Positions 28,323-32,745 of a stretch of 34,244 bases of DNA are shown in pieces. The position numbers were made by a program, and so were the translations under genes. The DNA is from Gemmatimonadota bacterium. Its GTDB lineage: Bacteria > Gemmatimonadota > Gemmatimonadetes > Gemmatimonadales > Gemmatimonadaceae. The notes beneath the pieces were generated by a model, which was not told the origin of the DNA, ran no database searches, and worked only from the letters and a program-made list of their open reading frames with translations. The first letter of the stretch is position 1. Each line of letters opens with the position of its first letter. Where the stretch lies: contig JAJPIS010000124.1 of NCBI GenBank assembly GCA_021324635.1, positions 1 to 34,244 on the forward strand, given 5' to 3'.

Positions 28323-28342
28323 GGGCGGCCGCCAGGCCGCCC
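28323..28342 (+). terminator. GC hairpin directly after the DsbA-like stop
   Basis: GGGCGGCC and its exact complement flank GCCA, an 8-bp stem starting 2 nt after the stop codon. There is no U-tract. It could stabilise the mRNA end or act with Rho. It joins the repeat-rich spacer. Confidence 0.4.
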
Positions 28343-28351
28343 CGCGGCGGG

Positions 28352-28623
28352 GCGCCATTCATGCCGCCCGCGATTCGCATCCCACACCGATGCCGGGGCG
28401 GCGTTTCGCGTGATCCCACGTCCCGCGGCCCCCCGTAGGGGCGGCGTTCATGCCGCCCGCGACTCGCATCCCGCACCAATGCCGGGGCGGCGTTCATGCC
28501 GCCCGCGACCCGCATCCCGCGCCAATGCCGGGGCGGCATTCATGCCGCCCGCGATTCGCATCCCACACCGATGCCGGGCGGCATTCATGCCGCCCGCGAC
28601 GCGCATCCCGCGCGGATGCCTGA
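28352..28623. repeat. 46-bp tandem array of GGCGGCAT/ATGCCGCC elements in a 355-bp gene-free spacer
   Basis: Copies begin near 28352, 28398, 28441, 28487, 28533 and 28578, so the period is 43-46 bp. A typical copy has a palindromic head GGCGGCATTCATGCCGCC and a spacer of the form CGCGAYTCGCATCCCRCACCRATGCCGGG. The second copy is degraded in its middle. The head matches the isolated palindrome at 778-809. No credible gene lies between 28322 and 28676; the short ORFs here translate only the repeats. Confidence 0.9.
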
Positions 28624-28676
28624 CCCGGCATTCCGCGCGCGTGGGTGCGTGGATGCCCGCCGGGGGCGACCGGGGG

Positions 28677-29168
28677 TTACGTGAGGAGCGCCCGATGCCA
28701 GGTGCGGCCGACCACCGTCTCGAATCGGTCGCGCCATTCGCCGGCGGTGGCCACCGTCGCGTCGAACACCGGCGTCTCATCGGTGATCGCGCCGGCCGTC
28801 GCCAGGGCCGAGAATTCCTCGCGCGACACGCTGCGAATCGCGCCGGCCGGCTCGCGAAACTGCACCCGCCCGCCGGCCACGAGGGTCGTGCCCAGGATCG
28901 GTTCGAGTGCCCGCAGGGCCCGGAAGAGGCCGTCGATCGAGCAACCCGATGCGTAGGCGTCCGTCTGATCGACGCCGATCACCAGGAACCGGTCGTCGCG
29001 CCAGGTGCGGCCACAGGTGAGCGGATGGCCGTGCGCCTGCCAGCCGCGAAGGTACTCGTCGACCGCCTCGAGGAGGCGGTCGGCCCGGGCACCCGTGATC
29101 GGCTGCTCGCTCGCGAACACCCAGACGCGGGCGGAGGGGGGGAGGGAGTCAAACGAGACGAGAGGCAT
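28677..29168 (-). CDS. Conserved GCSID-motif protein of unknown function
   Basis: A 163-residue cytoplasmic protein with no signal peptide. It resembles a family found in Bacteroidota and neighbours that databases often label ABC transporter ATPase without evidence: an N-terminal LPPSARVWVFAS block, a middle WQAHGHPL and a DAYASGCSIDGLFRALRALE motif. There is no Walker motif, so the ATPase label is not supported. The ATG at 29168 matches the family N-terminus; it overlaps the upstream TIGR01777 epimerase gene by 20 bp, which suggests coupled translation. The function is unknown. Confidence 0.78.
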   Translation of the reverse strand: MPLVSFDSLPPSARVWVFASEQPITGARADRLLEAVDEYLRGWQAHGHPLTCGRTWRDDRFLVIGVDQTDAYASGCSIDGLFRALRALEPILGTTLVAGGRVQFREPAGAIRSVSREEFSALATAGAITDETPVFDATVATAGEWRDRFETVVGRTWHRALLT

Positions 29169-30084
29169 GAGAGGAAAGTAGCTCGTGTCGGAGGGCCGAC
29201 TCCAGCGTCGGATGACCGAAGACGAAGCCGGCCGCGAGGAGCCGGCGCGGGACAGCGCGCTGGCTGGTGAGGAGGCCGGCGTCGGCCAGCTCGCCGTACA
29301 GCAACCGGACGACGAACGGCGGGATGGTGGCGACCGCAGGTCGGTGGAGCACCTGGCCAAGTGTGCGTGCGAACTCGGCGTTCGTCACCGGGTTGGGGGA
29401 CGTGACATTGACCGGTCCGCTCAGGGCCGGCGTGCGGAGGATGAACTCGAGCGCCTCGACCAGGTCGTCACGGGCGATCCAGCTCATCCACTGGGTGCCG
29501 CGCCCGATCTTTCCCCCGGCCCCCAGCTCGAACGGCGGGAGCATCTTGGCGAGCGCCCCGCCGCCGCGGGCCAGCGCGAGCCCGAGGCGCGGGTGAACGA
29601 CGCGGATCCCGGCGTCCCGCGCCGGAGCAGCCGCCGCCTCCCAGGCTCGACCGACATCGGCCAGATACCCATCGCCCAGCGTGCTTGCCTCGTCCAGCTC
29701 GGTGTCCCCTCGATCGCCGTAGATCCCGACCGCCGACGCCGAGAGGAGGACACTCGGCCTCGGACGCAGGGACGCCAGCGTGCGAGCCAGCAGCGCGGTG
29801 CTGTCGACGCGGCTCGTCCTGATGGTGCGCTTGTACTCCGGTGTCCATCGCGTGTCGATCGGCGCGCCCGCGAGATGGATCACGGCATCGACGCCGGCGA
29901 GGGCGGCCGGATCGAGCAGCCCACGTGCCGGATCCCACTGCGCGGTCCCGGCACCGGTCCCGGCGGTGCGCGTGACCCGGATGACCTGCCACCCGGCTGC
30001 CCCGAGCGCCGGGACGAGAGCGGCGCCCAGGAACCCCGACGAGCCGGTGACGGCGATGCGCGGCTGCGATGGCGTCGAGGTCAT
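29149..30084 (-). CDS. TIGR01777 family NAD-dependent epimerase/dehydratase
   Basis: A 311-residue Rossmann-fold SDR protein. The N-terminal motif is TGSSGFLGAAL, a nucleotide-binding GxxGxxG; HLAGAPI, SASAVGIYG, the G-DGYLADVGRAWE block and the VTSPNPVTNAEFARTLGQVLHRP block are typical of the YfcH/SulA-like TIGR01777 group. The true substrate is unknown in this family. ATG 30084 is chosen as it begins just before the Rossmann motif; an upstream start would add about 19 residues. The UdgX-type gene begins on the other strand only 13-55 bp away, so both starts need care. It is co-directional and overlaps the GCSID gene. Confidence 0.92.
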   Translation of the reverse strand: MTSTPSQPRIAVTGSSGFLGAALVPALGAAGWQVIRVTRTAGTGAGTAQWDPARGLLDPAALAGVDAVIHLAGAPIDTRWTPEYKRTIRTSRVDSTALLARTLASLRPRPSVLLSASAVGIYGDRGDTELDEASTLGDGYLADVGRAWEAAAAPARDAGIRVVHPRLGLALARGGGALAKMLPPFELGAGGKIGRGTQWMSWIARDDLVEALEFILRTPALSGPVNVTSPNPVTNAEFARTLGQVLHRPAVATIPPFVVRLLYGELADAGLLTSQRAVPRRLLAAGFVFGHPTLESALRHELLSSHASRLV

Positions 30085-30097
30085 CGGTGATGGATCG

Positions 30098-30916
30098 ATG
30101 GCGCCGATCGGCACATCCCTTGCCGCGCTCCGTGGCGACATGGCCGCGCGCCGGGAGGGCTCCGCATCGGGGGCGAAGCGCCCCGCGCGCGCGACGCGCG
30201 CTGACGGGGGCGCGGCGGCCGAGTGGATCCCCGCGGGCGCATCACTCGCCGCGCTTGGCGCCGCGGCGATGGGGTGCCGGGCATGCCATCTCTGGACGCT
30301 GGGGACGCAGACGGTGTTCGGGGAAGGGCCGGCTCGCGCACGCGTGATGATGGTCGGGGAGCAACCCGGAGACCAGGAGGACAGGGAAGGAGCGCCTTTC
30401 GTCGGGCCGTCCGGCGCGCTGCTCGCCGAGGGGCTGGCGGCCGCCGGACTCGATCGGGCGTCGATCTACGTCACGAACGTCGTGAAGCACTTCAAGTGGG
30501 AGCGCGTCGGGCGCAGCCCACGGCGGATTCACAAGAAGCCCAACGCGGCCGAGATCCGCGCCTGCCGGCCCTGGCTCGACGCCGAGATCGACCGCGTTCG
30601 CCCGTCGATGATCGTCTGCCTGGGCGCCACGGCCGCGCAGGCACTGCTCGGCCGGTCGTTCCGGGTCACCGGACAACGGGGGATACCACTCCCATCGCCG
30701 ATCCCAGCCGCGCGGGCCGTCATGGCGACCGTCCACCCGTCGGCCGTCCTCCGCGCACCCGACGCCGCCACCCGCGAGCGCGCGCGAGCGGAATTCTTCG
30801 CCGACCTCCACGCCGTCGCCGATCACCTGCGCACGGCGGATGGAGAATCGGGTGGCGTCAGGGCCCCGGGGCCGGCGCCAACTGCCCCGCCGCGGCCTGC
30901 GCCGCGTAGCGCTTGA
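30098..30916 (+). CDS. UdgX-type uracil-DNA glycosylase (family 4 fold, Fe-S)
   Basis: A 272-residue protein of the family 4 uracil-DNA glycosylase fold. The motif GEQPGDQEDREGAPFVGPSG (from residue 87), the Fe-S cysteines Cys60, Cys63, Cys156 and Cys174, and the late motif HPSAVLR (His213) are visible. Between motifs lies RRIHKKP (142-148). The RRIH loop with its His (here His145) is the hallmark of UdgX, which in Mycobacterium smegmatis binds uracil-DNA covalently rather than releasing it. The start is uncertain: ATG 30098 or ATG 30140 both precede the core (family N-terminus near residue 50), and the extra leader is Ala/Arg/Gly-rich. The 3' end overlaps sufE tail to tail by 59 bp. Classical family 4 glycosylase activity remains possible until tested. 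Confidence 0.85.
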   Translation: MAPIGTSLAALRGDMAARREGSASGAKRPARATRADGGAAAEWIPAGASLAALGAAAMGCRACHLWTLGTQTVFGEGPARARVMMVGEQPGDQEDREGAPFVGPSGALLAEGLAAAGLDRASIYVTNVVKHFKWERVGRSPRRIHKKPNAAEIRACRPWLDAEIDRVRPSMIVCLGATAAQALLGRSFRVTGQRGIPLPSPIPAARAVMATVHPSAVLRAPDAATRERARAEFFADLHAVADHLRTADGESGGVRAPGPAPTAPPRPAPRSA

Positions 30917-31343
30917 TGCGCATCAGCATGGCATTGAGCCCGACCTCGCGGGCGCCGAGCCCGATACTCTCCATCATCTGACGCGTGAAGTCCGGCGGGA
31001 TGGCGAGCGCCGTCGACGGCGGATGGTCGTTCACCGCCGACAGCAGGATCGCGAGGAACGCCGCCACCGTCGGCGACCGGCGGGCATCGACGTCGGCGTA
31101 GAAGTGGATCGCGCCGTCGGCTCGCTGCTCGGGATATAGCTCGACCGGCGTCTGGCACTCCGGGACCACATAGGCGGCACGGTCGAGCGCCCGGAACCGC
31201 TCCGGCACCGGCTCCAGCTTCTTGGAGTACTGCACCAGCGCCTGCATCTTTTCCTCGCGTGAGAGCGCGCGGAAATAGCTCAACACGCGAGCCACCGATG
31301 GCGGCACCGGCGCCACCGGCGGCGCGGACAGATCGTCGGCCAT
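30858..31343 (-). CDS. sufE: SufE-like sulfur acceptor protein
   Basis: A 161-residue SufE: it accepts persulfide sulfur from the cysteine desulfurase SufS and passes it to the SufBCD scaffold in Fe-S cluster assembly. The conserved acceptor Cys63 lies in VPECQTPVEL, and the rest follows SufE (FRALSREEKMQALVQYSKKL, then HFYADVDARRSPTVAAFLAILLSAVN, then IGLGAREVGLNAMLMRIK). No SufS or SufBCD gene is in the window. ATG 31343 matches the family N-terminus; the frame stays open through the 9-bp repeat upstream, giving a spurious RVG-repeat leader. It overlaps the UdgX-type gene by 59 bp. Confidence 0.92.
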   Translation of the reverse strand: MADDLSAPPVAPVPPSVARVLSYFRALSREEKMQALVQYSKKLEPVPERFRALDRAAYVVPECQTPVELYPEQRADGAIHFYADVDARRSPTVAAFLAILLSAVNDHPPSTALAIPPDFTRQMMESIGLGAREVGLNAMLMRIKRYAAQAAAGQLAPAPGP

Positions 31344-31371
31344 ACCGGAATATCGCCGGCCCCGCCGGCCA

Positions 31372-31443
31372 GGACCAATGCGACCGACGCGACCGACGCG
31401 ACCGACGCGACCGACGCGACGAACGCGAGTGACGTGACCGATG
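31372..31443 (+). repeat. 9-bp tandem array ending in the start codon of the glycosyltransferase
   Basis: Eight 9-bp units, four of them identical (CGACCGACG at 31381-31416), flanked by degenerate copies on each side. The last degenerate unit, TGACCGATG, contains both a TGA and the ATG of the glycosyltransferase gene. Confidence 0.85.
31378..31437 (+). CDS. Possible 19-residue leader peptide upstream of the glycosyltransferase
   Basis: ATG at 31378 opens a frame encoding Met-(Arg-Pro-Thr)4-Arg-Arg-Thr-Arg-Val-Thr, ending at TGA 31435-31437. CCG and the glycosyltransferase ATG follow directly, in the same frame. A short AGGA lies a few nt before the ATG. This could be a coupling or attenuating leader, or only a by-product of repeat expansion; its Arg/Pro-rich content would slow ribosomes. 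Confidence 0.3.
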   Translation: MRPTRPTRPTRPTRRTRVT

Positions 31444-32745
31444 CGGGTCACGATCCTCGCTGTCGGGTCACGGGGTGACGTTCAGCCATACATCGCGCTC
31501 GGGCTGGGGCTCACACGCGCAGGACATGATGTCACGGTCGCGACGCACGACACGTTTCGCGACTGGGTTCGCGAGCGGGGACTCGGATACCGCCCGATCG
31601 CCGGCGATCCGCGCGCGATCCTGTCGTCCGCCGATCGATGGCTCGCCTCCGGCCGCGTCCGGCACCTGGTCCCCGCGGCCCGCACGTTCGTGCGGATGCT
31701 CCGCCCGCTCCTGCCGGCGCTCCTCGCCGACTACTGGCGCGCCGCCCAGGGGGCCGACGTGCTGGTCTACTCGGCGGTCGCGGCGCCAGCCTGGAGCGTC
31801 GCCGAACGGCTCGACATCCCGGGGATCGCCGCCTTCCTCCAGCCGCTCCACCGCACGCGACTCTTCCCCGCCATCGGCGTGCCCGGGGCGGTCCGCCTGG
31901 GCGGCGACTTCAACGAGTGGACCCATGCCGCGGCGGCGCAGCTCGCGTGGCAGCCCCACCGGCGCCAGATCAACGCCTGGCGGCGCGGCGCCCTGGGACT
32001 TCCTCCCGCGCCCTGGACGGGGCCCTTCGGCCGTCCCCACGGCGACCGCGCGGCGATCCCGACACTCTACGGCTACAGTTCCGTCGTCGTGCCCCGCCCG
32101 CCGGACTGGGGGCCCGACGTGCACGTGACCGGCTACTGGGTGCTCGCGCCCGCGTCGGATTGGCGCCCGACGCCCGCGCTCGAGGCGTTTCTCGCCGCCG
32201 GGCCCCCGCCGGTGTACGTCGGCTTCGGGAGCATGACGCCGCGCGACGCCGCCCCACTCACCGCCTTGGCCGTCGGCGCCCTCGCCCGCGCAGGCCGGCG
32301 CGGCGTGCTGCTCGCCGGCTGGGGCGAGCTCGGCGCCGGTCCCCTGCCGCCCACGGTGATTGCGGTGCGTGATGTCCCGCACGAGTGGCTCTTCCCGCGC
32401 GTGGCCGCGGTCGTCCACCACGGCGGCGCGGGCACGACCGGGGCCGCGCTCCGTGCCGGCGTCCCCTCGGTGGTCGTTCCGCTCGGCTTCGATCAGCCGT
32501 ACTGGGCCGGTCGCGTGGCAGCCCTCGGCGCGGGACCTCGTCCCATCGCGCGGCGCCGGGTGACCGCCGAGCGCCTGGCAGCCGCGATCACGGAGGCGAC
32601 CGAGGACCCCGGGATCCGCCGGCGAGCCGCCGCCATCGGCTCGGCACTGCGCGCCGAGCATGGGGTAGCCGTCGCCGTGGCGGCGATCGAGCGCTACGCC
32701 GGCGCCGGCGAGCGGGGAACGCTCCGCGCGCCAGGCGGGTCGTAG
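31441..32745 (+). CDS. GT1 family glycosyltransferase (UGT/MGT type)
   Basis: A 434-residue GT-B fold enzyme moving a sugar from a nucleotide sugar to a lipid, sterol-like or natural-product acceptor. The N-terminal MRVTILAVGSRGDVQPYIALGLGL block is typical of sterol 3-beta-glucosyltransferase-like and rhamnosyltransferase-like GT1 proteins. The donor-binding C-terminal part shows VYVGFGSM, HEWLFPRVAAVVHHGGAGTT (His326-His327, Gly, Thr332-Thr333) and VPLGFDQPYWAGRV. The acceptor cannot be deduced. The ATG directly follows the 9-bp array. Its 3' end overlaps the mscS-like gene by 52 bp in a convergent arrangement. Confidence 0.9.
   Translation: MRVTILAVGSRGDVQPYIALGLGLTRAGHDVTVATHDTFRDWVRERGLGYRPIAGDPRAILSSADRWLASGRVRHLVPAARTFVRMLRPLLPALLADYWRAAQGADVLVYSAVAAPAWSVAERLDIPGIAAFLQPLHRTRLFPAIGVPGAVRLGGDFNEWTHAAAAQLAWQPHRRQINAWRRGALGLPPAPWTGPFGRPHGDRAAIPTLYGYSSVVVPRPPDWGPDVHVTGYWVLAPASDWRPTPALEAFLAAGPPPVYVGFGSMTPRDAAPLTALAVGALARAGRRGVLLAGWGELGAGPLPPTVIAVRDVPHEWLFPRVAAVVHHGGAGTTGAALRAGVPSVVVPLGFDQPYWAGRVAALGAGPRPIARRRVTAERLAAAITEATEDPGIRRRAAAIGSALRAEHGVAVAVAAIERYAGAGERGTLRAPGGS

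What the first reader, a model, noticed from the sequence alone, without database searches (positions are those of the whole stretch)
30098..30916. UdgX-type uracil-DNA binding protein with the RRIH loop
The protein has all four Fe-S cysteines and the family 4 motifs, plus RRIHKKP with His145. In characterised UdgX this His attacks the abasic intermediate and locks the enzyme covalently onto DNA. Here the gene is in a probably Gemmatimonadota-like genome and has an unusual Ala/Arg/Gly-rich N-terminal extension of about 50 residues.
Basis: partly seen in the sequence, partly recalled or inferred. Interest (0 to 1): 0.6.

Follow-up and report, generated by a model that had tools for sequence, protein, structure and literature searches.

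The report
Ordinary UdgX uracil-DNA crosslinking enzyme
This gene from a Gemmatimonadaceae bacterium encodes a normal member of the known UdgX family, a DNA-repair enzyme predicted to cut uracil out of DNA and then stay covalently stuck to the damaged spot; it is ordinary apart from its unusual place in the genome.

Summary
The ORF at 30098-30916 (+) is real and is UdgX. It passes the curated UdgX model (TIGR03914, 260 bits, cut-off 190). Its best solved relatives are all M. smegmatis UdgX, and its AlphaFold model fits UdgX-DNA 6iod best (Z 32.0, against 27.4 for family 4 UDG). It falls inside the UdgX clade even when motif and R-loop columns are removed. Every residue shown by mutagenesis to matter in MsmUdgX is present, including the cross-linking His (H109 = H145). 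The same genome encodes a separate classical UDG4. Only three cluster positions are Cys (60, 63, 156); the fourth is His131, as in all UdgX examined here, and the fourth Cys (174) aligns to Leu138 of MsmUdgX. The N-terminal extension has an uncertain start, is predicted disordered, and has counterparts in related UdgX. The R-loop reads PRRIH, not KRRIH, but the first position is free in this clade. UdgX is patchy in Gemmatimonadaceae (27 of 179 genomes). Two same-genus genomes lack it and carry a CDGSH gene at this spot. New member of a known kind; covalent trapping is inferred, not shown.

The parts
30098..30916 (+). udgX coding sequence, 272 aa (alternative in-frame start at 30140)
   Evidence: start uncertain
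30098..30211 (+). N-terminal basic, predicted-disordered tail (residues 1-38; 14 shorter if the start is 30140)
   Evidence: pLDDT under 50 for residues 1-35; tails in relatives
30275..30286 (+). C60-x2-C63, first two Fe-S cluster ligands
   Evidence: alignment to Msm C24, C27
30356..30382 (+). motif A GEQPGDQED (residues 87-95: E88, Q89, D92, D95)
   Evidence: alignment to Msm 51-59
30476..30490 (+). N127, K130 and H131 (H131 = Msm H95, in the place of a UDG4 Cys ligand)
30518..30532 (+). R-loop PRRIH (residues 141-145): R143 = Msm R107, H145 = Msm H109, the predicted cross-linking nucleophile
30563..30565 (+). C156, third Cys ligand of the cluster
   Evidence: alignment to Msm C120
30734..30754 (+). 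motif B HPSAVLR (residues 213-219; H213 = Msm H178, R219 = Msm R184)
29149..30084 (-). neighbour: TIGR01777 family epimerase, divergent from udgX
30858..31451 (-). neighbour: SufE-like protein (start uncertain); its 3' end overlaps the 3' end of udgX by 59 bp

Best explanation
The gene encodes a UdgX: a family-4-like, Fe-S-containing uracil-DNA glycosylase that acts once. It should bind uracil in single- or double-stranded DNA, flip the uracil into a pocket formed by E88, F101, N127 and H213, and break the glycosidic bond. His145 on the R-loop, activated by E88 and held by the R143-D95/D92 salt bridges and Q89, should then bond to C1' of the sugar, leaving a protein-DNA cross-link rather than a free abasic site. 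Shown here: sequence, fold and clade membership, and presence of every needed residue. Inferred from MsmUdgX: excision and covalent trapping. Turnover of ordinary uracil is probably done by the separate UDG4 of the same genome. UdgX more likely shields or marks uracil and AP sites as part of a damage response, a role suggested only by gene neighbourhoods in relatives.
For: TIGR03914 260.2 bits over the 189.95 cut-off, while the genome's UDG4 scores 156.6, below it. The best PDB relatives by sequence are all MsmUdgX, E about 1e-60, against 7e-27 for Thermus UDGa. AlphaFold model: mean pLDDT 84.6, core blocks mostly over 90, R-loop blocks about 76-80; top 28 matches all UdgX (6iod Z 32.0, rmsd 1.6, 211 residues), best UDG4 Z 27.4. 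UdgX clade support 100 with and without motif columns. Residues E52, Q53, D56, D59, F65, N91, K94, R107, H109, H178, R184 are all conserved, and their roles were studied by mutation (PMC10359453, PMC10776899). Only two PF03167 proteins in the genome: UDG4 and UdgX.
Against: No biochemistry for this protein or for any Gemmatimonadota UdgX was found in the papers searched. The first R-loop residue is Pro141 in place of the usual Lys (79 of 92 UdgX), and the neighbouring Gly is Ser. Loop mutants of MsmUdgX show that changes there can alter the balance of excision and cross-linking. The window copy lies outside the gene neighbourhood usual in its family, so its expression is uncertain.
Confidence: 0.93

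Rival explanations
1. It is a classical family 4 UDG that releases uracil with turnover.
For: It also passes the UDG_fam4 cut-off (141.6 against 125.3 bits) and shares the fold (Z 27.4 to Thermus UDGa).
Against: UDG4 rows have A/G at the Q53 position and lack the R-loop with R107 and H109; this protein has all three, and the tree separates it with support 100 even without those columns. The genome's own UDG4 is a different gene.
Confidence: 0.04
2. It is a decaying or misplaced UdgX copy with weakened or no activity: the gene lies outside its usual locus, is missing in sister species, has Pro at R-loop position 1, and overlaps a neighbour at its 3' end.
For: Absent from both same-genus genomes searched; located at a spot that holds a CDGSH gene there; fairly long terminal branch (0.52).
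Against: Intact frame, codon-position GC pattern typical of coding sequence over the core, all catalytic residues kept, and other Gemmatimonadota UdgX have A, T, E, G, V or R at that same loop position.
Confidence: 0.08

Closest known systems
Mycobacterium smegmatis UdgX (PDB 6iod, 6ail, 6ajo)
   Same: Motif A GEQPG, D56/D59, N91/K94, R107, H109, motif B HPS-R, cluster ligand positions C24/C27/H95/C120, R-loop of the same length; 54% identity over 201 aligned positions.
   Different: R-loop PRRIH instead of KRRIH; extra N- and C-terminal low-complexity tails.
Other Gemmatimonadota UdgX (e.g. L085, L090, L126, L143)
   Same: Same clade, same R-loop length in most, variable first R-loop residue, short basic N-terminal tails; about 60-69% identical.
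   Different: Many lie beside a DUF502 gene (divergent) and an HhH-GPD glycosylase gene; the window copy lies between SufE and epimerase genes.
Family 4 uracil-DNA glycosylase (Thermus UDGa 1ui0; own-genome L002)
   Same: Fold, Fe-S cluster region, E, N and H catalytic residues.
   Different: No R-loop, no Arg107/His109 equivalents, Ala/Gly in place of Gln in motif A; separate clade.

Membership tests
UdgX | Passes the curated UdgX model TIGR03914 | tested here: met
   260.2 bits, cut-off 189.95
UdgX | R-loop with Arg107 and His109 equivalents | tested here: met
   R143 and H145; both 92/92 in UdgX rows, P and N in all UDG4 rows
UdgX | Motif A GEQPG with Gln53 | tested here: met
   Q89; Q in 89 of 92 UdgX rows, A/G in UDG4
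UdgX | Full KRRIH letters in the R-loop, as in the prototype (usual; R107 and H109 are the strictly conserved part) | tested here: inconclusive
   PRRIH here: RRIH met, K not. The K is not invariant in the family (79/92; A, R, T, Q and others occur), so it is a usual rather than a defining residue
UdgX | Falls in the UdgX clade of a tree with UDG4 | tested here: met
   support 100, with and without motif columns
UdgX | Fold closest to MsmUdgX | tested here: met
   Z 32.0 to 6iod against 27.4 to UDG4
UdgX | Fe-S cluster bound | not testable with these tools
   Ligand positions C60, C63, H131, C156 match MsmUdgX; binding itself needs the protein. That His95 is the fourth ligand in MsmUdgX is from my own knowledge, not checked in a paper
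UdgX | Covalent, SDS-stable adduct with uracil-DNA through the R-loop His | not testable with these tools
   needs the protein
Family 4 UDG (UDGa) | GE(A/G)PG motif A, no R-loop, within the UDG4 clade | tested here: not met
   GEQPG, R-loop present, outside the UDG4 clade

The most novel reading that the evidence does not exclude
Gemmatimonadaceae UdgX is part of a two-glycosylase module (udgX followed by an HhH-GPD/AlkA-like gene), so cross-linking to uracil or AP sites may be coupled to another base-excision activity, and the window's lone, relocated copy with a PRRIH loop may have an altered excision-to-cross-link balance.
Probability: 0.15. Interest if true: 0.4.

Novelty: new member of a known kind. 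Interest (0 to 1): 0.18.

Why it matters
UdgX has been exploited to detect uracil in DNA, and its job in the cell is, to my knowledge, unsettled. This case adds a GC-rich member with a natural R-loop variant, and the neighbourhoods of its relatives (imuA-imuB/lexA in Acidobacteriota, an HhH-GPD glycosylase in Gemmatimonadaceae) point to a DNA-damage-response role that can be tested.

Tried and rejected
Companion genes TIGR03915 and TIGR03916, linked to UDG genes elsewhere: TIGR03915 is absent from all 15 genomes tried; TIGR03916-like proteins are below cut-off, on another contig in the window's genome, and also present in same-genus genomes without UdgX, so not tied to this gene. LexA-type palindromes near udgX: none of the patterns tried occurs in the window, and the Acidobacteriota loci share none. 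A phage origin: the listed phage hits reach only 37-43% identity with no UdgX annotation. UdgX does occur on large rhizobial and other plasmids, but the window locus has flanks syntenic with sister genomes.

Full report
Observation. The frame at 30098-30916 is open and encodes 272 residues. Profile matches are far beyond chance: NCBIfam TIGR03914 (UdgX family) 260.2 bits against a cut-off of 189.95, and Pfam UDG E 7.1e-37. The host is a Gemmatimonadaceae: a same-family genome's 7219-base contig matches in length, and has an identical UdgX core to, a named Gemmatimonadaceae record, JACMME010000126.

Identity. By sequence, all of the best solved structures are M. smegmatis UdgX (E about 1e-60), with family 4 UDGs next at E 7e-27 or weaker. 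An AlphaFold model from 33 relatives (mean pLDDT 84.6) superposes best on UdgX bound to single-stranded DNA (6iod, Z 32.0, rmsd 1.6 over 211 residues); the best UDG4 scores 27.4. In a tree of 113 proteins the UdgX rows, including the window, and the UDG4 rows, including the window genome's own UDG4 (L002), are cleanly split with support 100. The split stays when motif A, the R-loop and motif B are deleted. Within UdgX the window sits among Gemmatimonadota sequences (SH-aLRT 94 for a clade of 13 of the 15 rows), with its exact place unresolved.

Residues. Mapping to MsmUdgX gives E52=E88, Q53=Q89, D56=D92, D59=D95, F65=F101, N91=N127, K94=K130, R107=R143, H109=H145, H178=H213, R184=R219. These are the positions studied by mutation in published work (PMC10359453 and PMC10776899). 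The loop's first residue is Pro141 where most UdgX have Lys, but Gemmatimonadota UdgX show A, T, E, G, V, R and K there, so this looks like natural variation.

Corrections. The 'four Fe-S cysteines' statement is wrong. The cluster positions are C60, C63, H131 and C156; the His is invariant in 92 UdgX rows. C174 aligns with Leu138 in MsmUdgX. I recall that His95 is a cluster ligand in the MsmUdgX structures, but could not read a paper saying so. The N-terminal extension depends on an uncertain start (30098 or 30140; no clear ribosome-binding site at either), is predicted disordered, and is matched by short basic tails in several relatives.

Context. The genome holds two PF03167 proteins only, UDG4 and UdgX. 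UdgX occurs in 27 of 179 genomes searched in the family and in neither of two same-genus genomes. In those two, the SufE and epimerase genes flank a CDGSH iron-sulfur protein gene (G001:C95:53435-53683; G002:C5:286918-287166). In the window udgX lies on the opposite strand at that spot, and no CDGSH gene was found in the genome, which is 96.8% complete. In 26 other UdgX-bearing genomes of the family, an HhH-GPD glycosylase gene was found near udgX in 15 (same strand in 13, often within 100 bp) and a divergent DUF502 gene in 14, although flanks were short in some. The window copy has neither. The simplest reading is relocation or lateral gain in this lineage, in the place of the CDGSH gene; direction and donor are not resolved.

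Mechanism. One-shot uracil excision with covalent capture by His145 is inferred by homology. A damage-response role is hinted at by neighbourhoods: in 17 of 80 related loci, mostly Acidobacteriota, udgX lies near imuA-like, imuB-like or lexA genes. LexA passes its model at 186.7 bits; the ImuA-like protein has only sub-cut-off matches to ImuA and RecA models in NCBIfam, though it passes Pfam RecA; the ImuB-like protein has only weak matches to DNA polymerase IV models. SOS control of uracil-DNA glycosylase genes (COG1573-COG4277) has been reported or predicted in Bacteroidetes, Verrucomicrobia and Alphaproteobacteria (PMC8565304). No LexA site was found at the window gene with the patterns tried.

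Verdict. A correct but ordinary call: a new member of a known family, with two factual corrections and a mildly interesting genomic position.

Noticed in passing
L168, L171, L176, L177 and others (downstream of udgX; e.g. L176:4857-6308): In many UdgX-bearing Gemmatimonadaceae (15 of 26), udgX has an HhH-GPD (AlkA-like) glycosylase gene close by, usually downstream on the same strand, and a divergent DUF502 gene upstream (14 of 26); the window copy has neither.
   Followed up: partly
window 30085-30860; G001:C95:53435-53683; G002:C5:286918-287166: Same-genus genomes without UdgX carry a CDGSH iron-sulfur protein gene between SufE and epimerase, where udgX (opposite strand) lies in the window; the window's genome has no CDGSH match.
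   Followed up: partly
L029, L035, L046, L064, L067, L072 (Acidobacteriota) and L032 (Verrucomicrobiota): udgX lies next to imuA-like/imuB-like genes and lexA, suggesting membership of an SOS mutagenesis cassette.
   Followed up: partly
L002 and other Gemmatimonadota UDG4 loci: 13 of 21 UDG4 rows compared also have His in place of the third cluster Cys, so a Cys3His site is not limited to UdgX.
   Followed up: no
window about 28330-28780: Stretch whose frames read as repeated units (e.g. GMRVAGGMNAAP / RDAGRGRHERRP), suggesting imperfect tandem DNA repeats.
   Followed up: no
G000:C120:12583-13587: A radical SAM protein close to TIGR03916 (313 bits, below its 343.5 cut-off), a family named for its link to UDG genes, on another contig; also present in sister genomes without UdgX.
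   Followed up: no
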